A stretch of 52,695 nt of DNA from an uncultured Clostridia bacterium. Its GTDB lineage: Bacteria > Bacillota > Clostridia > Oscillospirales > Acutalibacteraceae. A program made the translations under genes and the position numbers. How positions within the stretch are numbered: the first letter of the stretch is position 1; every line of letters begins with the position of its first letter. Location: NCBI GenBank assembly GCA_946184925.1, contig CAMHHL010000008.1, forward strand, positions 1-52,695, read 5' to 3'. This document shows, piece by piece, positions 23,492 through 52,450 of this stretch. Below the pieces are notes generated by a model, which made no database searches, had not been told where the DNA came from, and saw only the letters and a program-made list of their open reading frames with translations.

Positions 23492-24985
23492 CTAAGTGTT
23501 TTCCGAGGTTGCCGGTTCAGGCGACCTCTTTTTTCCGTTGTATTTTAGGCAGAGCATTGTAAGGTCGTCAAAGCGCTCTGCTTCGCCGACGAAATCCGAA
23601 ACGGAGTTCGCGACATTATTGATAATATCCTTGGGTGAAGCCGACGGGTTTATATTCAGCGCGGCAGTCATGCGCTCCGTTCCGAAGAGTTCTTCATTAT
23701 TATTGTGAGCTTCGGGAATTCCGTCGGTATATACGAACAGAGACTCGCCTTCGCGAAGTGTAAACTCATAGTCGGAAAACTTAACACCTGAAATTCCGCC
23801 GAGAACAAAGCCGTGCCTGTCCTTGAGAACCTCAAACTCACCGTCAATCTTGCGAACCGCAGGATATTCGTGACCTGCGTTCGCCGCGATCACCTTACCC
23901 GAATCAATCTCCAGAATTCCAAGCCAAACGGTGACAAACATATCGGCAACGTTATTTGAACAGATTCTCTCGTTGACGAAGCTGAGAATTTCAGAAGGAG
24001 TTCCACCCATCATAGCCCTGTCGCTGATGAGGATTTTCGACGCCATCATAAAAAGCGCGGCAGGAATTCCCTTTCCCGAGACGTCAGCTATAACCATAGC
24101 AAGGTGATTGTCGTCAATCAGGAAAAAGTCATAGAAATCTCCGCCAACCTCGCGCGCCGTGTGCATTGCGGCGTATATATCGAACTCGTCATTATCGGGA
24201 AAAGCCGGGAAAATTGTCGGAACCATGCCCTGCTGAATCTGCGTTGCAGTGTTGAGCTCGCTTTTGGCGCTTGCCGACGCACGGGATATTTCAGCCTGCT
24301 CTATTACCATTTTGTGACCGTGCTTTGCAATAAGCACGGATATCATCGAAATAATTCCAAACACGAGCAGTCTCGGCAAAAATCCGTGAACCATTACTCT
24401 GAACACTATCGTTGCAAAATCGGTGTCAATCGCGGTAACGGTTGAACGAAGATTGTCGTGAATAATGAGCAGCGAACCCTCCGCAGGATTCGGATAAAAA
24501 TTGAGGTCAATTACACCGTAGAATATTGTCGAAAACGACGCCAAAGCAAGCATGACAATCGAAATCAAGGCAATATTCAGCGTGAAGCCCTTGGAGAAAT
24601 ATCTGCTCGACAGGAGCACGGGCAGCACCATAATCAGGATTACGTTATGGTTAAGCACGCTGAAAAGCCGCGTGCACACCAGCAGGAACGCAATCACCAT
24701 AACATATTTTAACCAACGCTTTTTGCCGTTGAATATTTTGTACAGAATATATGTTACGATAAGCTCCGCAAGTCCCTGAATCGAGAGAATATTCATCCGC
24801 GTCTTGTCGATTGTAAAGATACCGAACAGATTGAGAACCCACGAAACAGCAAGCACAACAGCGCTCGCCAGCAGTACATAAGAAACCAAGTCGTTGGACT
24901 GGATTTCATTCTGCTCAAATATTTCTTTAGTATCATCTGAACCGTAAACCGAAAAGACAGAGCGGATTTTTTTAGCTACTGCCAT
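23492..24985 (-). CDS. Membrane PP2C-type serine phosphatase (SpoIIE/RsbU family), last gene of the NRPS-like operon
   Basis: 497 aa. The N-terminal ~230 residues hold about six transmembrane helices with no large outer domain. A linker NTATQIQQGMVPTIFPAFP leads into a PP2C domain with EVGGDFYDFFLIDDNH, ADVSGKGIPAALFM, NAGHEYP, VYTDGIPEA and RFDDLTML. Predicted to dephosphorylate a STAS protein, most simply the one at 30063-30359 in the same operon, in response to a membrane signal. It starts 3 nt after the RsbW-like gene; GGGGTGAG precedes the ATG. Confidence 0.92.
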   Translation of the reverse strand: MAVAKKIRSVFSVYGSDDTKEIFEQNEIQSNDLVSYVLLASAVVLAVSWVLNLFGIFTIDKTRMNILSIQGLAELIVTYILYKIFNGKKRWLKYVMVIAFLLVCTRLFSVLNHNVILIMVLPVLLSSRYFSKGFTLNIALISIVMLALASFSTIFYGVIDLNFYPNPAEGSLLIIHDNLRSTVTAIDTDFATIVFRVMVHGFLPRLLVFGIISMISVLIAKHGHKMVIEQAEISRASASAKSELNTATQIQQGMVPTIFPAFPDNDEFDIYAAMHTAREVGGDFYDFFLIDDNHLAMVIADVSGKGIPAALFMMASKILISDRAMMGGTPSEILSFVNERICSNNVADMFVTVWLGILEIDSGKVIAANAGHEYPAVRKIDGEFEVLKDRHGFVLGGISGVKFSDYEFTLREGESLFVYTDGIPEAHNNNEELFGTERMTAALNINPSASPKDIINNVANSVSDFVGEAERFDDLTMLCLKYNGKKRSPEPATSENT

Positions 24986-24988
24986 AAC

Positions 24989-25399
24989 TCACCCCAGATG
25001 TTTTTTAATCTTAAGGATATTGCTGCCGTCCTTATACTCATAGTCGACCATATTCATCGACTTCTTGACAAGAAAGATTCCGAGACCGCCGATTTGTCTC
25101 TCCTCTGCGGAGAGCGTCGTGTCAGGATCGGCTGTTTCAAGCGGATTGAACGGCTTGCCGTTGTCGATAAATGTGATTATCACGGCAAGGGGGTCATCCT
25201 CAAGCTCGAAACGAACAGTAGCGTCGCCCTTGTTGGGGTTATACGCATATCTCGCTATGTTGCCGAAGAGTTCGTCAATCGCGATATCAATCTGCATCTG
25301 AGCTTTCATGGGGCAGCCGAGAGCTTCAAGCTCATCGTTGATAAAATCTGTAACTGTTTCTATATTTTCTATTGCAGCTTCAATAGTCAGTTCTTTCAT
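24989..25399 (-). CDS. RsbW/SpoIIAB-like serine kinase (anti-sigma-type HATPase)
   Basis: 136 aa, a stand-alone GHKL ATPase domain. N box IDIAIDELFGNIARYAY, G1 box FIDNGKPFNP and G2 box IGGLGIFLVKKSM are complete. RsbW-type proteins bind a client and phosphorylate a serine on the matching STAS protein. It lies 8 nt after the carboxylesterase and 3 nt before the PP2C gene, so kinase and phosphatase are made together. 24 of its features recur in the homologue at 50081-50491 (same ending NILKIKK/NILTIKK type). No sigma factor is next to it, so its client is open. Confidence 0.92.
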   Translation of the reverse strand: MKELTIEAAIENIETVTDFINDELEALGCPMKAQMQIDIAIDELFGNIARYAYNPNKGDATVRFELEDDPLAVIITFIDNGKPFNPLETADPDTTLSAEERQIGGLGIFLVKKSMNMVDYEYKDGSNILKIKKHLG

Positions 25400-25407
25400 T
25401 GAATCAC

Positions 25408-27069
25408 CTAATCCTTTAAAAGCTTTCGCACAGCAATGACAGTCGCCGCTGTTGCCGCCGAAACAGCAAGCACATGGACAACCGCCTTTCGGACAAACGG
25501 AACATTGAAGTCAAGTCCCGAGGAAGAAGCATTAAGCATATGGCGCAGTATCGGCGAAAGATGCTTGCGGTGCACGCTGTGGACATCATCCACCATACGC
25601 AGCTTCATAGAAAGAATCATCGTTTTCCTATTCGAGCAGTCATATTCATCCCAGTTCAAATTCGGGAGCGACGGATTTCCGGTCTTGGCGAAATTAGCCC
25701 ACATACTCATAACGGCTGCCGAAAGATTTTTGTTGGCAGGTTTTCCGGTATAAATAGCCTCATTCGTGTTTCCGAAAACATAAGCAAGCTCGACCGCGTG
25801 ACAAGCTCCCCTGAACGGGATTGAGCTCGGCTCGGTCCAATAGTACATAAAGACCTTTCCGCCGTTTCTGCTGTGATACTCAGCCTGCTTGATGGCAGGG
25901 AGTCTGAACATAATCTCGTTATAAAATTCGGTTATCTTCCAGATGCTGTGCCCCTTGAGCCCCGACATAAAATGATGAACCCTGCGCCTGTCAATCTTAG
26001 TAAGGAGGCGAATGTCATTCTCATACTTCACCGGCATACTGAATCTGTACGGAACGATTCCGCCCAGTTCGCCTACCCAATAGTTAAGCTCGTTGGCATT
26101 TGTACCAATCAGCATATCAACATCGACGGTGTAGCCTTCTTCATACGGAGCATAGGGATCAAGCGGAATCAGCTTGCCGTCGCGCTGCGGGAAATTGTTA
26201 TCGAGGTTTAACTTCTTGTTCAGAGCGATTATTTCGTTGGTGCTGAGTTTCATCAAATCGTTGATGTGACGAACTCCTGTACCTTCAATCAGCTTTCTTG
26301 TATACTCGCGGCACTCAGCCTTTGATGAAGTGAGCGCGACGGAGCCGCTCTGCGCGATAACACGCCTGAACAGTCCTTTTGCCTCCGGGATAATCGGCAG
26401 AAGCGACACGCTGCCGCCGCCTGCCGACTCGCCGAAAATCGTTACGTTATCGGGATTTCCGCCGAAAGCTTGAATATTTTTCTTTATCCAGCGCAGAGCT
26501 TCAATCTGGTCGAGCAGACCGAGGTTGGGAGCGTCGGGATAGTCCTCGCCGCCGGGAATATAGCTCAAATCGACAAAGCCGAGAAGCCCGACACGATAAC
26601 CTACGGTAACAAGAATGATATCGGGATGCGCGCTGACAAAGTTGTGCCCGTTATACAGAGGGTCAGCGGTGCCGCCCCAACCGTAGGAACCGCCGTGAAA
26701 GAAAACCATGACGGTTTTGTCGGCGTCCGGACATGTCTCGTTTAGCCAAATGTTAAGATAAAGGCAATCCTCTCCCTGGGGATAATAAGAAGCCTTCTCG
26801 GACTCCCATTCTGTCTGAACAGGAGATTTACCGTTATAATACGCTTCAAAGACCTCATCGCAGTTATCCGGCGGAACCGGGCGCTTCCAGCGCAGGGAGC
26901 CTACCGGCTGTTTCGCAAAGGGAACGCCTCGAAAGGAAATGATATTATTCCTGCGCTTACCGACGAAAGTACCGTTGAGACATTTTGCGGAGAGCTCAGC
27001 CTCGTATTCGCCGGTAATTTTATTGTTGACGCCGTAGCTTTTTTGAATCTCTGTCTTTGATGTACTCAT
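25408..27069 (-). CDS. Type B carboxylesterase/lipase with C-terminal membrane segment
   Basis: 553 aa alpha/beta hydrolase. Oxyanion HGG at 125-127, nucleophile S215 in GESAGG, acid E327 in GTNANEL and base H424 in GACHAVELAYVFG form the expected triad. The family start FRGVPFAKQPVGSLRW is present and there is no signal peptide. Residues about 528-548 (HVLAVSAATAATVIAV) form a membrane helix ending in RKLLKD, so the enzyme should be a tail-anchored protein on the inner face of the membrane. Its ATG overlaps the NRPS stop by 4 nt. With no thioesterase domain in the NRPS-like partner, it may release or trim the product; this is inference. Confidence 0.9.
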   Translation of the reverse strand: MSTSKTEIQKSYGVNNKITGEYEAELSAKCLNGTFVGKRRNNIISFRGVPFAKQPVGSLRWKRPVPPDNCDEVFEAYYNGKSPVQTEWESEKASYYPQGEDCLYLNIWLNETCPDADKTVMVFFHGGSYGWGGTADPLYNGHNFVSAHPDIILVTVGYRVGLLGFVDLSYIPGGEDYPDAPNLGLLDQIEALRWIKKNIQAFGGNPDNVTIFGESAGGGSVSLLPIIPEAKGLFRRVIAQSGSVALTSSKAECREYTRKLIEGTGVRHINDLMKLSTNEIIALNKKLNLDNNFPQRDGKLIPLDPYAPYEEGYTVDVDMLIGTNANELNYWVGELGGIVPYRFSMPVKYENDIRLLTKIDRRRVHHFMSGLKGHSIWKITEFYNEIMFRLPAIKQAEYHSRNGGKVFMYYWTEPSSIPFRGACHAVELAYVFGNTNEAIYTGKPANKNLSAAVMSMWANFAKTGNPSLPNLNWDEYDCSNRKTMILSMKLRMVDDVHSVHRKHLSPILRHMLNASSSGLDFNVPFVRKAVVHVLAVSAATAATVIAVRKLLKD

Positions 27070-30053
27070 TTCTTTCTCCTGAAAATACCCTTTACCGTCT
27101 CGAAGAAGTTCTTCTTGTCGGTGAGCTTCTTTCTGAGCTCGCCGATTGTAACATCCTTCTGAGAGTTGTGAGTTACAAGAGACTGAGCGGTATTTACGAA
27201 GAGATCACGGAATTTCTCCATGCTTGAATCCTCATAGCGGCTTGCGGCATAGTCCATCATCAGGACGAGACCATCAGCGCCGTCGAGAATTTCCATATCA
27301 ATAATTGTCTGGGAAGCAGCCTGATTCTGCCTGATGTCGATTGTCTCAACACTGAGCTCCTCAAGTCCGCCCATATCACGGATATCCTGCTGATAGAGCA
27401 GATATGCGGTGTCGTCGTTGACAACCTCTCTGTCCTTCTCAACATAAGGATAACAGCTGTGCTCAATGCCCTTCTGAACCTGATTGTGAACATCGGCAAA
27501 AGCCTCGCGCAAGGTCATATCGTCTCTGAACCTGATACCGACAGGAAGGTCGCGGAAGAGAAGTCCTACCGACGACATGCTGAGCATATCCTCTCTGCCG
27601 TTATAAATCCAGGACAGCTTAATATCATTCTTATGGTTATATACAGCGATTGCAAGCGCAAGAGCGGTAATAAAGAACTCGTTACGGCTGATTCTGTACT
27701 GTTTTTCCATAGCCTTCATTTGGGGCTGTTCAATACCGATGGGCGCAAACACCTCGCCCATCTCATTCTCGCGAGACTCGTGGTCGGTTTTCGGATAGCT
27801 TGACCATTCGATTCCGTCGTAGGTTTCTTCGAAATACTTCTTGCTCTCCTCATAGAAGTCGCTGTGCTCAGCGTCCTCACGGTTTTGAAGCATAAGATAA
27901 TAGTAATCCGGGTCGGGGAGCATTCCCATATACAGCTTTCCGACGTTACCCATAAACAGCTTGAGCGATGTGCCGTCAAAGAGTGTGTGATGAATATCAA
28001 AGAAGATGTAGCCGTTCTTCTCTGTCTCGAACACACGACAGCGATAAAGGCTTCCGTCAATAATCTTAAACGGCTGAACAAGAGTATCCTTTATGCAGTC
28101 GAACTCGAATTCGGTCATCTTCTCAACATGTATATCACGGAGAGTTTCGGGAGAATACTTCTGAACGATATCGCCGTCATCATTGAATTTAAATGTAGTA
28201 AGAATCGCAGGATGATGCTTGATAGCGGTTTTCATTGCATCGGCGAGTTTTTCGAGATCAAAGGTTTCCTTATCAACCTTCATCATCGAGAAAAGATTAT
28301 ACATGGTGGACTTGGGAGTATAGAGCTGATAGTCAACCATATAAAGCTGCTCGGTTGTGAGCGGATGCTCGGACTTCATCGCGCGAGCATTCTTGATTTC
28401 GGGGGATTCACCGTCGTCATTTGCGTGAGCCTCTTCATAGAGCACTGCAATCTTGGCGGCAGTTCTGCCACGGAAAATCTCACCGGAATTGAGTCCGGGA
28501 AGCCCGCTTTCTACAATGAGCTGAATAGAGGTGAGCGAATCACCGCCGAGCTCATAGAAATCGTCGTTGATACCTACCTGTTCAAGCTTCAGAACCTTCT
28601 CCATTGCTAAGCAAAGCTTCTCCTCGGTCTCGTTGGTAGGAGCGGCGTACTCGGTTCTGAAATCCTTGGTGTCGGGCTCAGGCAGAGCCTTTCTGTCCAT
28701 TTTACCGTTGGGTTTCAGCGGAACCTTGTCAATCTTGATATAAAACGCCGGAATCATATAATACGGCAGACGCTTTGAGAGTTCTTCACGCATCCTGTCC
28801 GGATCAACATCAACATCGGCAGTATAGTAAGCGCAGAGATAGCTCTTGCCGTTGTTATCAAAGCCCTTTGCGGCAGCCCAGTCAATGCCGAGAACCTGCT
28901 TTACGGAGGCTTCAATCTCGGCAGGCTCAATACGGTTGCCGTTAATCTTTATCATATCGTTGGAGCGACCGAGGAGGAGATAATCTCCGTTCTCGTTCTT
29001 GCGCGCAAGGTCGCCGGTATGATAAATGCCGTCGGTGAACGCCTTCTCGGTTTCTTCGGGAAGGTTGATATATCCGCGGACGAAGGGATTCTCGAAGCAG
29101 AGTTCGCCTGTTTCGCCCTCATCGACCTCATTGCCGTCCTCATCAAGAAGGAGGATTCTGGTATCAATCTCCGGCTTACCTACCGGGCAGGTGTCATAAG
29201 CCTTATCAATCTTGAATACGCCGACAGCAAAACCGCTTTCAGACGCAGCGTAGATATTGATGAGGTCAAGATTCTTATTATAGATATTATTCGCAGGCTC
29301 ACTTCCGACGAAGAGCATTCTGAGGAAGGGGCCGGTCTGGTTGCCGAGCATACGTACATATGACGGCGTAAGGAATGTGATTGAAATACGCTTCTCAATA
29401 AAGAATTTCTTGAGAGCGAGCGGATTCTTGATTGTGGCATAGCCGACAACGAACATCTTACCGCCGCAGATACTGAGCATCTCAAGAATTACAATAACCG
29501 ACGCGACAAAGTTCATCGGAGCCAGAAGCGCAACTCTGTCCTTACCGTTGAACGGAATCTCTCCGTTAAGGCGGACAGATTCAATCGCCCTTGTGAGGTT
29601 GCCGTACTCATGAAGCACGCCCTTGGGGTTGCCTGTAGTACCTGAGGTGTAAATTGCATAAGCGGCGTCGTGCTCGTCAGCCTGCTCAAAGCCGGCAAGC
29701 GGCTCCGTCTGCATAACATCGTCCCAGTTTGCGCCGCAAATCTCAGCCTTGCAGCCGCAGTCCTTGCGAATAAACTCAATTCTCTCGGGGGCGTAGGTAT
29801 CCTCAACCAGCGCCCAAGCCGCTCCTGCCTTCCATACGCCAATCATAGCGATAATCGGCATAATGCCGCGCGGCAGGTTAATCAGCACAAAATCCTCTCT
29901 GCCGATTCCTTGATTTTTCAAATAAGCATATACGCGTCCGCTGAGGTCATCGAGCCTTGAATAAGTTATACCTTTGGTATGAGCCTCATCATAGAGCACG
30001 GTGGCGTTGGGCTTCTCATGCGTATACTGCTTAAGCATTTCCAATACTGTCAT
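27066..30053 (-). CDS. NRPS-like protein: adenylation, carrier and terminal condensation domains
   Basis: 995 aa in the order A (1-465), PCP (470-545), C (560-960). Adenylation motifs: A3 YTSGTTGNPKGV (135-146), A5 NIYAASESG, A7 YHTGDLA, A8 GRSNDMIKINGNRIEPAEIE and A10 lysine K451 in PNGKMDRKALP. Carrier serine S506 in LGGDSL. The condensation motif HHTLFDG (688-694) is intact. At A4 the aligned sequence is NFVASV, placing Val183 where amino-acid-activating domains keep the Asp that holds the alpha-amino group, so the substrate may not be a normal alpha-amino acid. There is no thioesterase, reductase or second module. The terminal C domain would join the bound acyl group to a free amine or alcohol. 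The C-terminal end is basic (IFRRKK). Confidence 0.92.
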   Translation of the reverse strand: MTVLEMLKQYTHEKPNATVLYDEAHTKGITYSRLDDLSGRVYAYLKNQGIGREDFVLINLPRGIMPIIAMIGVWKAGAAWALVEDTYAPERIEFIRKDCGCKAEICGANWDDVMQTEPLAGFEQADEHDAAYAIYTSGTTGNPKGVLHEYGNLTRAIESVRLNGEIPFNGKDRVALLAPMNFVASVIVILEMLSICGGKMFVVGYATIKNPLALKKFFIEKRISITFLTPSYVRMLGNQTGPFLRMLFVGSEPANNIYNKNLDLINIYAASESGFAVGVFKIDKAYDTCPVGKPEIDTRILLLDEDGNEVDEGETGELCFENPFVRGYINLPEETEKAFTDGIYHTGDLARKNENGDYLLLGRSNDMIKINGNRIEPAEIEASVKQVLGIDWAAAKGFDNNGKSYLCAYYTADVDVDPDRMREELSKRLPYYMIPAFYIKIDKVPLKPNGKMDRKALPEPDTKDFRTEYAAPTNETEEKLCLAMEKVLKLEQVGINDDFYELGGDSLTSIQLIVESGLPGLNSGEIFRGRTAAKIAVLYEEAHANDDGESPEIKNARAMKSEHPLTTEQLYMVDYQLYTPKSTMYNLFSMMKVDKETFDLEKLADAMKTAIKHHPAILTTFKFNDDGDIVQKYSPETLRDIHVEKMTEFEFDCIKDTLVQPFKIIDGSLYRCRVFETEKNGYIFFDIHHTLFDGTSLKLFMGNVGKLYMGMLPDPDYYYLMLQNREDAEHSDFYEESKKYFEETYDGIEWSSYPKTDHESRENEMGEVFAPIGIEQPQMKAMEKQYRISRNEFFITALALAIAVYNHKNDIKLSWIYNGREDMLSMSSVGLLFRDLPVGIRFRDDMTLREAFADVHNQVQKGIEHSCYPYVEKDREVVNDDTAYLLYQQDIRDMGGLEELSVETIDIRQNQAASQTIIDMEILDGADGLVLMMDYAASRYEDSSMEKFRDLFVNTAQSLVTHNSQKDVTIGELRKKLTDKKNFFETVKGIFRRKK

Positions 30054-30062
30054 GTTCGCTCC

Positions 30063-30359
30063 TTATTCTACTGTAAGAATGTCGGAAAAACCTGTAACTT
30101 CAAAGATGTCACGGACAGTCTCATTAACACCGATAAGCTTCATTGAACCCTGCTTGTTCATCGTCTTCTGGAGTGAAAGAAGTACTCTCAGACCTGCGGA
30201 AGAGATGTAATTGAGCTCAGAGAAATCGAGAACGAGTTCTGTTACTCCGTCGAGCTCCGCCTTTGTCTTCTGCTCAAATTCGGGAGCTGTCGCGGTGTCG
30301 ATTCTGCCCTCAACATTTACTGTGAGTTTTGTTGAGTCCTTGTGTGTTTTGATTGTCAT
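30063..30359 (-). CDS. STAS-domain anti-anti-sigma-type protein
   Basis: 98 aa, a full-length SpoIIAA/RsbV-like protein. The phosphorylation loop is ELNYISSAGLRVLLSL, with S53/S54 at the usual target position, and the C-terminus DIFEVTGFSDILTV matches the family. It should be phosphorylated by an RsbW-like kinase and dephosphorylated by a PP2C. It sits between the transporter-HATPase fusion gene (31 nt upstream) and the NRPS gene (9 nt downstream), with AAAGGAG before the ATG. The STAS homologues at 47811-48947 and 52112-52450 share the ISSAGLRVL loop. Confidence 0.93.
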   Translation of the reverse strand: MTIKTHKDSTKLTVNVEGRIDTATAPEFEQKTKAELDGVTELVLDFSELNYISSAGLRVLLSLQKTMNKQGSMKLIGVNETVRDIFEVTGFSDILTVE

Positions 30360-30390: not shown

Positions 30391-32160
30391 TTATAACTGA
30401 ATTGTAAGGTTATTGAGTTCCATGGTACTGAGATAACTGACCTTTTTCGCCATTCCGCAGACCATTCTGATTCCGATGTTGGAGGTCGGGTCGTCACTCT
30501 CATGGAGCTTTATCCATTCTGTAGGGTCAAACTGCTTGCAGTCGTCTCGGAAACGAATCGTCCAGCCGTCGGAAAGCTTCATTACACGAATGTCTATACT
30601 GTATTTTTTGCCGTCCTTAAAGCCGTATTCAACAATATTGTTGCTGAGTTCCTCGACAAACAAAGCAGTCAGAGTTGAAATCTTGTTGCCGGCATTATGT
30701 CTTAGGCAAAATTCGCTGACAGCCTCGGAAGCGGGAATAATATCGTTTTCTTCCGAAATGGTTGTTTCAAACAAATCCTCTTCAGGAACACCGAAGGGCT
30801 CCTTGAGGAAAAGAAAGTCTGAGAAACGGAACGGAAAACCCCGCTTTTGGATTGCCGCAAATACGATAATGCAAAGCAGCGTCGCAACCTCGGCAACTAT
30901 ATACGCAATCCATACAGCGTCGGCGTCCATAGCTCCCGAAAGTAAAAGCGCAGGGAGGACAAGGAACACAAAGCTCTGCAGGAAGCAGAAAATGTTTGAG
31001 ATCGTCATTCTTCTCATTCCCTGAGTATAGTTGACAAATACATTATTTAAGCCGTAGAGGACGATACTGAGCGCATAGAAACGCAGACCTCGGGAAGCAA
31101 GCTCGACCATCTGTTTTCCGTCAGCCGAGCCGAACACTCCGGCGATAAAGTCCGCGCAAACGAACACAATCACTGCGAGAATCAAGCCGACTACCAGGGC
31201 AGTTTTTACCGCGGTTTTCACGAGCGCTTCGGCAGCGCTTCTGTCCTGCTCGCCGAGTATCATCCCGGCAATCATCGCCGCCGTAAGCCCAACGCCAATC
31301 ATTGTTGACGAGGTGAAGTTATAAACAGTATTAAGTACTCCGAGAGCCGCGACAGCAGTTGCCGAAAGGACAGTTCCTGCCATAATATTGTTCAGAACGC
31401 CGTTGCGGAGCATTGCCGAAACTGAGCCCACCGCGGACGCAGAACCGATGGAAAGAATATCGCCGAGATCCCTGAGCTTCAGACCCTTGGGCGAAAATCT
31501 AAAGATGATATCCTTCTTTCTGAAATGAAGAAGCATAATCACGAGCGCAACGAAATAGCTGATTGAGGTAGCGAGCCCCATTCCGAGCATTCCGCCGTGG
31601 ATAACAAGAGCATTGAGCAAATCGCCGGCAACATCAAGAAGCGTCATAACAACAACAGCTACGATAACACGGTTGGGGTCGCCGTCGAGCCTCATTAGAG
31701 AATTAAACTCAAAGAGAAGCAAAACGGACGGGAACGCAAAAACCATTCCGAGCAGATAGTCTGACGCAAGCGGAAGAAGGTGAGCGGACTTTCCCCTTGC
31801 GCCGAGGAGCACGCAGATGTTACCTCTGAACAGGAGAATAACCGCCATCATAACAACAGCTATAATCGCCGTAATAACCATACACATCGAAAAAGCCCTT
31901 CTGGCTCTGTCGGCTTTTCCTGCGCCGAGATGCTGAGCACAAACAACCTGTGCGCCGGCGGCGAGAATACCGCTGAATGCGGTCGCCAGGTTAATAACGG
32001 GAGTGACAAGACCATACGCAGCCATGCTGTCTGTTCCGAGAAAACGACCGATAACTATTCCGTCGATGACTACGCCTATCATAGTCGCAACCGCTGCGGC
32101 GATAATACTTACTACCGATTTCTTGAAAAGCTTGCTGATAATCATGCCTTTACTTTTCAT
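30391..32160 (-). CDS. MATE-family transporter fused to a C-terminal RsbW-like ATPase domain
   Basis: 589 aa. Residues 1 to about 450 form twelve predicted helices with MATE/DinF-type features (GRFLGTDSMAAYGLVTPV at the start, LGAGKADRARRAF after helix 2). Residues about 470-589 are an RsbW-like HATPase: N box LFVEELSNNIVEYGF (500-514), G1 RDDCKQFDP (539-547) and G2 SNIGIRMVCGMAKKV. In G1 the usual glycine (DxG) is replaced by Cys541, so ATP binding may be altered. MATE proteins export drugs or metabolites using Na+ or H+. Here transport is likely gated by, or is the client of, the partner switch encoded downstream. First gene of the six-gene operon; only AAAGG is seen as a ribosome site. Confidence 0.9.
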   Translation of the reverse strand: MKSKGMIISKLFKKSVVSIIAAAVATMIGVVIDGIVIGRFLGTDSMAAYGLVTPVINLATAFSGILAAGAQVVCAQHLGAGKADRARRAFSMCMVITAIIAVVMMAVILLFRGNICVLLGARGKSAHLLPLASDYLLGMVFAFPSVLLLFEFNSLMRLDGDPNRVIVAVVVMTLLDVAGDLLNALVIHGGMLGMGLATSISYFVALVIMLLHFRKKDIIFRFSPKGLKLRDLGDILSIGSASAVGSVSAMLRNGVLNNIMAGTVLSATAVAALGVLNTVYNFTSSTMIGVGLTAAMIAGMILGEQDRSAAEALVKTAVKTALVVGLILAVIVFVCADFIAGVFGSADGKQMVELASRGLRFYALSIVLYGLNNVFVNYTQGMRRMTISNIFCFLQSFVFLVLPALLLSGAMDADAVWIAYIVAEVATLLCIIVFAAIQKRGFPFRFSDFLFLKEPFGVPEEDLFETTISEENDIIPASEAVSEFCLRHNAGNKISTLTALFVEELSNNIVEYGFKDGKKYSIDIRVMKLSDGWTIRFRDDCKQFDPTEWIKLHESDDPTSNIGIRMVCGMAKKVSYLSTMELNNLTIQL

Positions 32161-47810: not shown

Positions 47811-48947
47811 TTATAGTGTTTTAAACAGATATTTAATAGTCTGCTCGTTGGGAATTACAACACCTCTGAGCAATTTGTCCATCAAAATCGGAGCCAGCTC
47901 ACGCGCCTTTGGCGAGCCGCCGCCGACAGTCAATATTACATTGAAAGCAATCAGCAAGCCGAGTTTCTGAAAATATTCCTTGAGCTGTTCGGAATCTGTG
48001 ATACCGGTGTACTTCATAAAGAACATATTGCCGACCTTGATACACAAATCAGCAGGCATACCGGTGCTGCGCTCGATACTTCCCTTTTCCGCACCTGCCG
48101 GAGCGCTGACCATATCGCGAAAGGTCGCGACAAGGTCGCATATCGGCGGTCCCATAGAAATCCCGGGCATATCAATCAGCACAAGCTCGTCGTTATGAAT
48201 CATAATATTACCCGGGTGAAAATCGCCGTGGACTACCGTGTTAACCTTGGGGATTTCGTCCGTAATACTGTGCATTATCGCGATTTCCTCATCGGAGCAC
48301 CACTGTGTAAGATTATCTATATGGCGATGATACACATCCTGCACACGCTCTATGCTGCCGTCGGGCATCTCCGTTGAATGAAGTGTTTTCGCAAGATCAA
48401 CATATTGGTCGGTATATTCGACGAGCTTTTCCGGATTGTTCTTCATAGCGTGACCTAATGTATCGGAGTTGAGCAATTCAAATACAACGCCGTAGCTATC
48501 CCCTACCTTGACCATATCATAAGCTATAACAGACGGAATGCCGCTCATAAACGCCGAACGCGCGTACTCACGCTCGCGGTCAATTCCTTCAATGCCGATT
48601 TTTGACTTATAGACCTTAACAATAGTTTCGTTATCGAGACGATAAACGGCACCGTTGCCGCCTTCTCCGATAAGCTCGCAGCCGTCCACTGAGATTTCAC
48701 GCAAGGCTTTTTTGACATTCAGGATTGTTGTAAAGCCTGTGACATCAAAAATCTCGTAAACCTCGGGGCTGACGTTGAAGATTGTTACATCATCAACCTG
48801 TTTTCTGAGCTTCATCAGCACGCGAAGTCCTGCACTCGAAATATACTGAAGCCCGGAAGCGTCAATCTCGGTAGGCTTTGCCGCTAAAATCTCTTCTTCA
48901 AACTGAGGAGCGTTGGTTGAGTCAATTTTTCCTTTTATTTGATACAT
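47811..48947 (-). CDS. STAS domain fused to an aminoglycoside-phosphotransferase-like kinase (TIGR02172-like)
   Basis: 378 aa. Residues 1-85 are a complete STAS domain with the phospho-loop LQYISSAGLRVLMKLRKQ (S37/S38) and the end YEIFDVTGFTTIL. Residues 88-378 are a protein-kinase-like fold: Gly-rich loop IGEGGNGAVYRL (93-104), Lys111 in IVKVYK, catalytic loop VVHGDFHPGNIMI with D242 and N247, and metal Asp259 in VLIDM. The kinase part resembles the TIGR02172 family first noted in Fibrobacter. A kinase joined to its likely substrate suggests self-phosphorylation of the switch, which is inference. It follows the lipoprotein acetolactate decarboxylase gene by 12 nt and precedes the EamA gene. 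Confidence 0.88.
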   Translation of the reverse strand: MYQIKGKIDSTNAPQFEEEILAAKPTEIDASGLQYISSAGLRVLMKLRKQVDDVTIFNVSPEVYEIFDVTGFTTILNVKKALREISVDGCELIGEGGNGAVYRLDNETIVKVYKSKIGIEGIDREREYARSAFMSGIPSVIAYDMVKVGDSYGVVFELLNSDTLGHAMKNNPEKLVEYTDQYVDLAKTLHSTEMPDGSIERVQDVYHRHIDNLTQWCSDEEIAIMHSITDEIPKVNTVVHGDFHPGNIMIHNDELVLIDMPGISMGPPICDLVATFRDMVSAPAGAEKGSIERSTGMPADLCIKVGNMFFMKYTGITDSEQLKEYFQKLGLLIAFNVILTVGGGSPKARELAPILMDKLLRGVVIPNEQTIKYLFKTL

Positions 48948-50080: not shown

Positions 50081-50491
50081 TTAATTCAGATTTTTCTTTA
50101 TGGTGAGAATATTCTGTCCATCCTTATATTCGTAATTGACTTGATCCATAGATTCCTTAACCATAAAGATACCCAAGCCGCCGATTTTGCGTTGCTTTGC
50201 GGAGAGAGTTGTGTCGGGATCCGTCCGTTCAAGCGGATTGTACTGTCTGCCGCCGTCGATGAAAGTTATCTCGACGGAGAGCGGTTCATCATGCATGGAA
50301 ATCTGAACAACAGCGTTTCCGGTTTCCGGACTGTAGGCATAGTTTGCGATATTGACGAACAACTCCTCAACAGCTACGTCAATCGCTATCTGCGTTAACA
50401 TAGGACAATCTGCACTTTCGAGTTCCCCGTCGATGAAAGCCTGAACCTCGGGCAGATTATTTCTGTCAGCTTCAATTACAAGTTCCTTCAT
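50081..50491 (-). CDS. RsbW/SpoIIAB-like serine kinase (anti-sigma-type HATPase)
   Basis: 136 aa, the same length as the copy at 24989-25399 and close to it in sequence. N box VEELFVNIANYAY, G1 FIDGGRQYNPLERTDPDTTLSA and G2 IGGLGIFMVKESM are complete. It starts 2 nt after the PP2C stop, with GGAGGA before the ATG. Together with the STAS and PP2C genes upstream it forms a textbook RsbV-RsbU-RsbW set, except that no sigma factor follows. Confidence 0.93.
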   Translation of the reverse strand: MKELVIEADRNNLPEVQAFIDGELESADCPMLTQIAIDVAVEELFVNIANYAYSPETGNAVVQISMHDEPLSVEITFIDGGRQYNPLERTDPDTTLSAKQRKIGGLGIFMVKESMDQVNYEYKDGQNILTIKKNLN

Positions 50492-50493
50492 TG

Positions 50494-52011
50494 TTATTCC
50501 TCCGCCGCAGGACCTTTGTATTTCAAGCCGAGCATTGTCAAATCGTCAAACTGCGGAGCTTCTTTTACAAAAGCGTCAACAGCAACGCGGACGCACCTCA
50601 GCACTTCCTTCTGCGATGAGCCCTCAGGAACAGCGTTGAGAGCTTCGAGAGTGCGGTCTGTACCGAACAGCTGATTTTCAGCATCGGTAGCTTCGGCAAC
50701 ACCGTCGGTATAGACAAATATGCTGTCACCCTTTTTGAGCGTGACTTCGGTATTTCTGTACTTGGATATCGGCATCGCACCTATAGCCAGACCGTGCACG
50801 TCCTTCAAAATCTCGTATTTTCCGTTTGTGTTAATCATCGGGTATTCGTGGCCTGCACTTGCGCTTGTGAGCTTTCCGGTGCTGATTTCGAGTATTCCGA
50901 GCCACACGGTGACAAACATATTGGCGTCGTTGTTCTCATAAACCAGCTTATTTACTCTCTCTAGTATCTCTGCCGGTGTGCCGCCGATGATCGCGTGGTC
51001 GTTGATTAGAATCTTCGAGGACATCATGAACAGCGCCGCCGGGACGCCCTTTCCCGAAACATCCGCTATAACCATTCCGAGGTGGTCGTCGTCAATCATA
51101 AAGAAATCGTAGAAATCTCCGCCGACCTCTTTTGCAGGATCCATGGAAGCGTAAATATCAAACTCACTGCGATTCGGAAAAGGCGGAAAGATTGAAGGGA
51201 GCATACTCGTCTGTATTTCCGTAGCCATATTGAGCTCAGTCTGGGTTGCGGCAAGTTTTCTGCTCCTGTCATTGAATATGACGCAGTACATAATAACCAG
51301 CGACATAAGCACAATTCCGTACTGGCTGCCTTCACCGAAGGTCGCGCCGAGCAAGATGTATTCAATAATGGGCAGGAAAATGAACGTTAGTATTGCAGCT
51401 TTCTGGTTTATGGAGATTCGGACCATAATAACCTTTATCGTCGTAAGCACAGCGGTTACGGCAAGAAAAACTTGCTCTATCATGAAAATTTCCGTATCCT
51501 GATACACACCATCGGAATTAACCGAGAATGTGACAGGAAAGAAAATATTGGATAACAAAATCAGCGTTTGGATTGCTAACACTATGGGGATGATTATGTC
51601 AGCAATTTTTGTATACTTTCCATCAAAGCCGAGTACTGCTCTTACATAAAGGTAAAAAACAAGTATCATCGCAAGGTCAATAAGCTTGCTCACAAAGCAA
51701 AGTATAAAAAATATTGTTCTGCTCTGAGGCACGCCACCTGTATAGCGCACAACCTCATTGACAGCAAAGCAAGCGCTGACCATAATGATTAGTATTCTGA
51801 ATGATCTTGACCCGTCGCCATCTTGGTTCATACAGCCGTAAAACAGCGCAGCGCAGATAAGCGAGCCCAATGAGTCTACACCGGCGTCAAATAAGTAAGG
51901 CTGCAGCCTTTGCTCCATGAAAAACGGTGTGCTGAGCAACATTATAAAAGCGGTTGATGCAATGGTAAAAATCAATCCGTATAATCTGAAATCTTTTAGT
52001 TTCTTAACCAT
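50494..52011 (-). CDS. Membrane PP2C-type serine phosphatase (SpoIIE/RsbU family)
   Basis: 505 aa from MVKKLKDFRL at 52011, chosen because GGGAG lies 8 nt upstream; the track start at 52026 has no ribosome site. Seven or eight membrane helices (about 10-245) resemble a 7TM sensory region. The linker ELNMATEIQTSMLPSIFPPFP and the PP2C domain follow: EVGGDFYDFFMIDDDH, ADVSGKGVPAALFM, SAGHEYP, VYTDGVAEA and QFDDLTML. Predicted to reactivate the STAS protein encoded just upstream. Confidence 0.92.
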   Translation of the reverse strand: MVKKLKDFRLYGLIFTIASTAFIMLLSTPFFMEQRLQPYLFDAGVDSLGSLICAALFYGCMNQDGDGSRSFRILIIMVSACFAVNEVVRYTGGVPQSRTIFFILCFVSKLIDLAMILVFYLYVRAVLGFDGKYTKIADIIIPIVLAIQTLILLSNIFFPVTFSVNSDGVYQDTEIFMIEQVFLAVTAVLTTIKVIMVRISINQKAAILTFIFLPIIEYILLGATFGEGSQYGIVLMSLVIMYCVIFNDRSRKLAATQTELNMATEIQTSMLPSIFPPFPNRSEFDIYASMDPAKEVGGDFYDFFMIDDDHLGMVIADVSGKGVPAALFMMSSKILINDHAIIGGTPAEILERVNKLVYENNDANMFVTVWLGILEISTGKLTSASAGHEYPMINTNGKYEILKDVHGLAIGAMPISKYRNTEVTLKKGDSIFVYTDGVAEATDAENQLFGTDRTLEALNAVPEGSSQKEVLRCVRVAVDAFVKEAPQFDDLTMLGLKYKGPAAEE

Positions 52012-52034
52012 TTTGTTTTCTCCCATATAACAGC

Positions 52035-52091
52035 ACCCGATATCATAACCGATATGCGCATATTATGCGACATTCACGGGCATTATCGGGT
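52035..52091 (-). promoter_or_regulatory. Intergenic inverted repeats between the STAS and PP2C genes
   Basis: Outer arms ACCCGATA (52035-52042) and TATCGGGT (52084-52091) enclose a perfect palindrome ATATGCGCATAT (52052-52063). It may adjust the ratio of STAS to PP2C mRNA or be an operator for the downstream genes. Confidence 0.45.
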
Positions 52092-52111
52092 CTGTTTCAT
52101 ATTAATTTGTC

Positions 52112-52450
52112 TTATTCGATGGTAAACATCAGGCTAAAGCCGGTAAGGTCAAAAACGTCGCGCACAGCCTGCGAAAGATTGCGAACGACCATGTCACCTC
52201 TGCCATCTATTCCCTGCACAGCACCGAGCAGGACACGAAGTCCGGCGCTGGAGATGTAATCGAGCTTTGCGAGGTCAAAAATCATCCTCTCGGCTTTGTC
52301 AATCACGTTCTTGACCTCAGCATCAAGGTCAGGGGATGTCAGCGTATCAAGCCTTCCGTTAAGCAGAAATGTGTATTCCGCTCCGTTCTTTTTAACAGAA
52401 ATATTCAGACCGGAAGCAGTGTTTGAATTATTTTTTCTTCTCAGAGCCAT
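52112..52450 (-). CDS. STAS-domain anti-anti-sigma-type protein
   Basis: 112 aa. A short basic N-terminal extension (RRKNNS) precedes the STAS fold. The phospho-loop is KLDYISSAGLRVLLG with S67/S68, and the end is VFDLTGFSLMFTI. AGGAG precedes the ATG. First gene of the STAS-PP2C-RsbW set, 100 nt before the PP2C start used here. Confidence 0.92.
   Translation of the reverse strand: MALRRKNNSNTASGLNISVKKNGAEYTFLLNGRLDTLTSPDLDAEVKNVIDKAERMIFDLAKLDYISSAGLRVLLGAVQGIDGRGDMVVRNLSQAVRDVFDLTGFSLMFTIE

What the first reader, a model, noticed from the sequence alone, without database searches (positions are those of the whole stretch)
27066..30053. Stand-alone A-PCP-C enzyme with a terminal condensation domain and altered substrate pocket
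Seen: the order A, PCP, C with intact HHxxxDG and no release domain. At A4 the residue aligned with the amino-group-binding Asp is Val183. Inferred: it loads a carboxylic acid without a free alpha-amine and passes it to a free amine or alcohol acceptor, giving an amide or ester.
Basis: partly seen in the sequence, partly recalled or inferred. Interest (0 to 1): 0.7.

Follow-up and report, generated by a model that had tools for sequence, protein, structure and literature searches.

The report
Single-protein acyl-coupling enzyme in rumen bacteria
Rumen and gut bacteria carry a conserved one-protein enzyme that appears to activate a carboxylic acid without an alpha-amino group and join it to a free acceptor molecule, and in this genome it sits in an operon with an exporter and a signalling switch; the chemistry is of a known kind, the protein family is not described under any curated model I searched, and its product is unknown.

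Summary
The 995-aa minus-strand ORF is A-PCP-C with intact PCP serine, HHTLFDG and A10 lysine and no release domain. The position of the alpha-amine-binding Asp235 is Val183, and it is V, I, L or N in all 72 relatives aligned (38-85% identity). Among 48 other A domains of this genus the two marks travel together without exception (36 with both; 12 with neither: ten N-terminal A domains, two acyl-CoA ligases). In 11 of 31 genomes that carry it this protein holds the only condensation domain, so no second NRPS is needed as acceptor. Best reading: a self-contained synthase that loads an amine-free acid and passes it to a free nucleophile, probably an amine. The gene lies in a six-gene operon with a MATE-HATPase exporter, STAS protein, carboxylesterase, RsbW-type kinase and PP2C phosphatase; similar regulator/MATE neighbours of NRPSs were already reported in Methanobrevibacter ruminantium. 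It works like fatty-acid-amide (Oaa) pathways, but its C domain is a separate clade. New variant of a known kind; substrate, acceptor and product unknown.

The parts
27066..30053 (-). A-PCP-C protein, 995 aa
28674..30053 (-). Adenylation domain (about residues 1-460); pocket code read as V A I S L V I F A K
29505..29507 (-). Val183, position of GrsA Asp235
29244..29246 (-). Ala270, position of the A5 proline (LgrA P483 / StsA M415)
   Evidence: PMC11253843
28419..28646 (-). PCP domain with GGDSL; Ser506 invariant in 38 relatives
27129..28388 (-). Terminal condensation domain (about residues 556-975)
27972..27992 (-). HHTLFDG catalytic motif; second His, Asp and Gly invariant in 38 relatives
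30391..32160 (-). MATE exporter with C-terminal RsbW-type HATPase domain, 589 aa; in this lineage the G1 box reads D[DN]C instead of DxG
30063..30359 (-). STAS-domain protein, 98 aa, SSAGL phosphorylation-type motif; 9 bp upstream of A-PCP-C
25408..27069 (-). Type-B carboxylesterase (para-nitrobenzyl esterase family), GESAG nucleophile, hydrophobic C-terminal segment; overlaps A-PCP-C by 4 bp
24989..25399 (-). RsbW-type kinase (HATPase_c_2), 136 aa
23492..24985 (-). PP2C/SpoIIE-type phosphatase with a hydrophobic, probably membrane-embedded N-terminal half, 497 aa

Best explanation
A self-contained acyl-transfer synthase. The A domain adenylates a carboxylic acid that has no free alpha-amine and loads it on the protein's own PCP; the terminal C domain then transfers the acyl group to a freely diffusing nucleophile, most likely an amine (amide product), releasing product without a thioesterase or reductase. 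The small product is probably exported by the neighbouring MATE protein. Synthesis and/or export is probably tuned by the STAS / RsbW-kinase / PP2C partner-switching genes of the same operon, and the carboxylesterase probably hydrolyses a precursor or the product. Shown by sequence: domain order, catalytic residues, pocket marks, family conservation, operon, absence of any other condensation domain in 11 genomes. Inferred: the chemistry, the acceptor, export, regulation and the esterase's role.
For: Intact A, PCP and C catalytic residues, invariant across 38 diverse relatives. Val/Ile/Leu/Asn at 235 and a non-Pro A5 residue in 72/72 relatives; in 48 control A domains the two marks co-occur in 36 elongation domains and are both absent in 12 N-terminal A domains or acyl-CoA ligases, never one alone. 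Aliphatic residues at 235 and loss of the A5 Pro are published marks of alpha-keto acid A domains, and a small aliphatic residue at 235 of alpha-hydroxy acid ones (PMC10949194; PMC11253843); two Oaa-like fatty acid ligases found here show the same pattern (A/V at 235, YGM[ST]E). Closest A domains are loading A domains of A-T-C-A-T-R synthetases (37-38% identity against about 30% for amino-acid ones). In 11 of 31 A-PCP-C genomes, seven of them at least 95% complete, the only Condensation domain is that of A-PCP-C. A Sfp-type PPTase is present in this genome, and a 175-aa ORF that looks like one by eye sits beside the gene in Erysipelotrichaceae (no Pfam match). Same-strand operon with MATE, STAS, RsbW, PP2C and esterase; the regulators are scarce in the genome (10 STAS, 8 HATPase_c_2, 6 SpoIIE), with about 0.02-0.04 of each expected by chance in 8.7 kb.
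Against: No substrate, product or expression data. McyG shows Val at 235 in a domain described as activating L-Phe. The pocket was read by sequence alignment, not by structure. The C domain is not especially close to C domains known to use free amines. The regulator/MATE genes lie next to only about a third of A-PCP-C genes with enough flank, so they are not obligatory; the esterase is more constant in the window's lineage but absent in others.
Confidence: 0.6

Rival explanations
1. The A domain loads a hydrophobic alpha-amino acid despite lacking Asp235, and the product is an aminoacyl amide or a dipeptide-like conjugate.
For: McyG has Val at this position and is described as L-Phe activating (PMC11253843); the pocket is hydrophobic.
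Against: The A5 proline is also missing, and in 48 control A domains of the genus the two marks never separate; nearest A domains are N-terminal loading ones.
Confidence: 0.15
2. The product is an ester: the A domain loads an alpha-keto, alpha-hydroxy or other acid and the C domain acylates an alcohol (lipid headgroup, sugar or hydroxy acid); in the lineage with Lys at position 239 the acid may be a dicarboxylate.
For: Aliphatic residue at 235 plus non-Pro A5 matches StsA-type alpha-keto-acid domains; a carboxylesterase directly follows the gene in 31 of 64 testable loci; Lys at 239 in 12 distant relatives.
Against: No ketoreductase insert, which depsipeptide modules of this kind carry; nothing identifies an alcohol acceptor.
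Confidence: 0.15
3. A detached loading module that passes its acyl group in trans to another NRPS in the cell (here the C-A-T-C-A-T-reductase on contig C53).
For: The domain order equals the loading module of A-T-C-A-T-R synthetases of the same genus, whose A domains are the closest relatives; the own genome has an NRPS with an N-terminal C domain.
Against: 11 of 31 carrier genomes have no other condensation domain at all; the two loci lie on different contigs; A-PCP-C already has its own C domain.
Confidence: 0.06

Closest known systems
Oaa fatty-acid-amide pathway of gut Clostridia (OaaA ligase + ACP + free-standing C domain OaaC; PMC13142362)
   Same: Acid activation, loading on a carrier and C-domain transfer to a free small acceptor; no release domain; residues at 235 and A5 in Oaa-like ligases found here (L158, L159) are also non-Asp and non-Pro.
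   Different: Here one polypeptide, not three; HHxxxDG instead of (D/H)HxxxD(S/A); C domain in another clade (100/100 split) and A domain only 24-25% identical. Genomes G046 and G113 carry both systems.
Loading modules (A-T-C) of A-T-C-A-T-R NRPSs of the same genus
   Same: Domain order; A domain 37-38% identical, also without Asp235 and A5 Pro.
   Different: Stand-alone with no downstream module; the C domains do not form one clade with it (AU test p 0.0007).
LgrA (linear gramicidin synthetase; 6MFZ and others)
   Same: Best solved-structure match over A-PCP-C by sequence and fold.
   Different: LgrA activates valine with Asp235 and GPTE and continues into a second module.
NRPS loci of Methanobrevibacter ruminantium with serine phosphatase, anti-sigma-factor antagonist and MatE genes (PMC2812497)
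   Same: Same kinds of regulator and exporter genes beside an NRPS; prior report of the association.
   Different: Those NRPSs are multimodular; here the biosynthetic gene is a lone A-PCP-C followed by a carboxylesterase, and the MATE carries an RsbW-type domain.
McyG and StsA adenylation domains
   Same: Val or Ile at the 235 position (PMC11253843).
   Different: Parts of large assembly lines. Their remaining pocket residues were not compared here.

Membership tests
Canonical alpha-amino-acid NRPS module | Asp at position 235 of the A domain | tested here: not met
   Val183; V/I/L/N in 72/72 relatives
Canonical alpha-amino-acid NRPS module | A5 motif GPTE with conserved Pro | tested here: not met
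   AASE here; A/M/C/S/Q in 72/72; P in 36/36 elongation A domains of the genus
NRPS condensation domain superfamily (PF00668) | Pfam match and HHxxxDG with conserved second His | tested here: met
   E 6.7e-37; H689 D693 G694 invariant; fold match to TycC and LgrA C domains
Fatty-acid-amide (Oaa-type) pathway | C domain belongs to the FAA clade with (D/H)HxxxD(S/A) | tested here: not met
   HHTLFDG; separate from two Oaa-like C domains with 100/100 support. Gly occurs in 17% of FAA domains (PMC13142362), so the motif alone is weak evidence
Fatty-acid-amide (Oaa-type) pathway | Separate ligase, ACP and C proteins | tested here: not met
   All three domains in one ORF
alpha-keto/alpha-hydroxy acid depsipeptide module (StsA/CesA type) | Aliphatic residue at 235 and non-Pro in A5 | tested here: met
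   published marks
alpha-keto/alpha-hydroxy acid depsipeptide module (StsA/CesA type) | Embedded ketoreductase domain | tested here: not met
   No further Pfam domain in 995 aa
alpha-keto/alpha-hydroxy acid depsipeptide module (StsA/CesA type) | Remaining pocket code like that of the matching amino acid | tested here: inconclusive
   Code VAISLVIFAK; no table of codes was on hand to compare it with
Aryl-acid A domain (DhbE/EntE type) | Asn235 and A5 motif QQVxFMAEG | tested here: not met
   Val183 and NIYAASESG; motif as given in PMC11253843
SigB-type partner-switching module | STAS antagonist with Ser, RsbW-type kinase and PP2C phosphatase encoded together | tested here: met
   STAS 30063-30359 (SSAGL), HATPase_c_2 24989-25399, SpoIIE 23492-24985
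SigB-type partner-switching module | A sigma factor as the switched target | not tested
   No sigma factor among the operon's six ORFs; elsewhere in the genome not searched

The most novel reading that the evidence does not exclude
A widespread single-protein acyl-amide synthase of herbivore gut bacteria makes a small signal or effector whose export is gated directly by a STAS/RsbW/PP2C switch acting on the HATPase domain of the MATE transporter, that is, partner switching that controls a transporter rather than a sigma factor.
Probability: 0.2. Interest if true: 0.75.

Novelty: new variant of a known kind. Interest (0 to 1): 0.45.

Why it matters
If the reading is right, many rumen Ruminococcus species and some Lachnospiraceae, Erysipelotrichaceae and one Coriobacteriaceae MAG make a small acyl conjugate with one enzyme that can be expressed and assayed on its own. 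Gut bacterial acyl amides of the Oaa kind act on host receptors (PMC13142362), so a second, separate route to such molecules would be worth knowing. The perfect coupling of two pocket marks in 48 control domains also suggests a simple sequence rule for spotting amine-free loading domains in this group.

Tried and rejected
Handing over to the genome's other NRPS (C53): rejected as necessary because 11 carrier genomes have no other condensation domain. Membership in the Oaa/FAA clade: rejected by tree and motif. C domain in one clade with the loading-module C domains: rejected by AU test. NCBIfam equivalogs: all far below curated cut-offs. A fourth condensation hit in the genome (C169, 23.3 bits, below cut-off) lies on a small contig with a transposase-like ORF and was dropped. 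AlphaFold coordinates are not readable here, so no pocket superposition was made. The regulator/MATE association is not new: it was missed by three paper searches and then found in PMC2812497. The GrsA numbering of the ten pocket positions rests on the LgrA alignment plus the review's residue list; the GrsA sequence itself was recalled, not fetched.

Full report
What is there. The ORF at 27066-30053 on the minus strand encodes 995 residues. Pfam finds AMP-binding, PP-binding and Condensation in that order and nothing after the condensation domain. The PCP core GGDSL and the condensation motif HHTLFDG read straight from the DNA. In 38 diverse relatives the PCP serine, the A10 lysine (K451) and the second His, Asp and Gly of the condensation motif are invariant. 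The closest solved structures over the whole length are those of LgrA, by sequence and by fold. The separate model of the C domain (pLDDT 87, pTM 0.84) matches ordinary condensation domains such as TycC and LgrA.

The pocket. phmmer and MAFFT both place Val183 where LgrA and the genome's own amino-acid A domains have Asp. The ten-residue code reads V A I S L V I F A K. Across 72 full-length family members at 38-85% identity position 235 is V (56), I (14), L (1) or N (1), 236 is always Ala, 278 always Ser, 517 always Lys. [quoted passage not shown] As an internal control I read 48 A domains from other proteins of the same genus: 36 have both Asp235 and the proline, 12 have neither, and none has only one. 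The 12 are ten A domains at the very N-terminus of their proteins and two acyl-CoA ligases. Two ligases of Oaa-like fatty-acid-amide clusters that I came across also have A/V at 235 and Met at the A5 position. A domains with an aliphatic residue at 235 are described for keto acids (PMC10949194). A caution: McyG has Val there and is described as activating L-Phe.

Relatives. In the genus of this genome 26 of 59 relatives carry the protein (25 at 72-85% identity, one at 51%). Species genomes of GTDB gave 79 loci, mostly MAGs from rumen and gut of herbivores, labelled Ruminococcus, Lachnospiraceae, Erysipelotrichaceae, Bacillales and one Coriobacteriaceae. In an even draw of 291 genomes of the class it is rare and patchy. 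The A domain tree puts the family with N-terminal loading A domains (94/91) and away from elongation domains and LgrA (97/91), with long branches that call for care. BLAST agrees: 37-38% identity to the nearest loading A domains, about 30% to amino-acid ones, 24-25% to Oaa-like ligases. The C domains form one clade (100/99) that is not joined with the C domains of loading modules (AU p 0.0007) or with N-terminal C domains, and they stand apart from two Oaa-like C domains with DHxxxDS/HHxxxDS (100/100). The C domain diverges faster than the rest: distant members keep 38-44% overall but only 26-31% in the C domain, which would fit a conserved acid and varying acceptors (inference).

Does it need a partner NRPS? 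Of 31 genomes with the protein, 11 (G005, G006, G007, G018, G035, G039, G055, G057, G059, G200, G208) have exactly one Condensation domain, the one in this protein; seven of these genomes are at least 95% complete. The window's own genome does hold a second NRPS, C-A-T-C-A-T followed by what looks like a thioester reductase, on contig C53, but such a partner is evidently not required.

The operon. On the minus strand, from 32160 down to 23492, run a MATE exporter with a C-terminal RsbW-type HATPase domain, a 98-aa STAS protein, A-PCP-C, a type-B carboxylesterase (4-bp overlap), an RsbW-type kinase and a PP2C phosphatase. The genome has only 10 STAS, 8 HATPase_c_2 above cut-off and 6 SpoIIE matches. 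Among 33 relatives with at least 5 kb on both sides, same-strand neighbours within 5 kb are esterase 20, STAS 13, PP2C 12, MATE 11, RsbW 6; these loci are not independent of one another. Some Erysipelotrichaceae and Lachnospiraceae keep PP2C, A-PCP-C, MATE and STAS in another order and lack the esterase; most of their MATEs have no HATPase domain. A distant group, mostly from rabbit gut, instead has GH3-family proteins and paired ABC exporters. The esterase has GESAG in 39 of 39 and a hydrophobic C-terminal segment in 34 of 39; its best solved relative is para-nitrobenzyl esterase. Of 20 other NRPS loci taken from the genus, 19 have a MATE homologue next door and most also STAS or PP2C genes. 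That kind of association was reported in 2010 for Methanobrevibacter ruminantium (PMC2812497), so it is not new.

Most likely mechanism. The A domain adenylates an acid without a free alpha-amine and loads the PCP; the C domain moves the acyl group to a free nucleophile, probably an amine; the product leaves through the MATE. The partner-switching genes probably tune expression, synthesis or export, and the esterase probably cleaves a precursor or the product. The residues and gene order are shown; the chemistry and the roles of the neighbours are inferred. It works like the Oaa pathway but is not a member of it. No NCBIfam equivalog fits, so I rate it a new variant of a known kind.

Limits. 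No structure superposition, no expression or chemical data, MAG contigs that often end near the gene, relatives drawn by a peptide-pattern search that favours close ones, and a paper library that lacks most subscription journals.

Noticed in passing
L014 (own genome contig C53) 1325-12819: Second NRPS of the genome, C-A-T-C-A-T with a reductase-like C-terminus, with a STAS gene just upstream and followed by its own MATE-HATPase fusion and a PP2C-HATPase protein.
   Followed up: partly
L158 6340-9510 and L159 6-3209: Oaa-like fatty-acid-amide clusters (C domain with DHxxxDS or HHxxxDS, small ACP, ligase) in genomes G113 and G046, which also carry A-PCP-C. L159 has STAS and PP2C-like genes nearby.
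   Followed up: partly
30391-32160 and homologous loci: MATE transporters fused to an RsbW-type HATPase domain; in the A-PCP-C lineage the ATP-binding G1 box is consistently D[DN]C instead of DxG, hinting at a binding rather than kinase role.
   Followed up: partly
47811-48947: STAS domain at the N-terminus of what looks like an aminoglycoside-phosphotransferase-like kinase; unusual fusion, kinase part read by eye only.
   Followed up: no
50081-52450: A second partner-switching trio (STAS 52112-52450, PP2C 50494-52026, RsbW 50081-50491) without a biosynthetic gene.
   Followed up: no
L109 6755-8443, also L111-L115 and L126: GH3-family proteins (plant-type acyl amido synthetase family) beside distant A-PCP-C genes, in most loci together with paired ABC exporters.
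   Followed up: partly
L156/L161 (G277 contig 1, around 434-437 kb): An NRPS open frame of 15,413 codons, with one stretch resembling A-PCP-C.
   Followed up: no
L055 and L061: Two contigs of the same goat-ileum MAG carry near-identical A-PCP-C loci; real duplication or redundant assembly is not decided.
   Followed up: no
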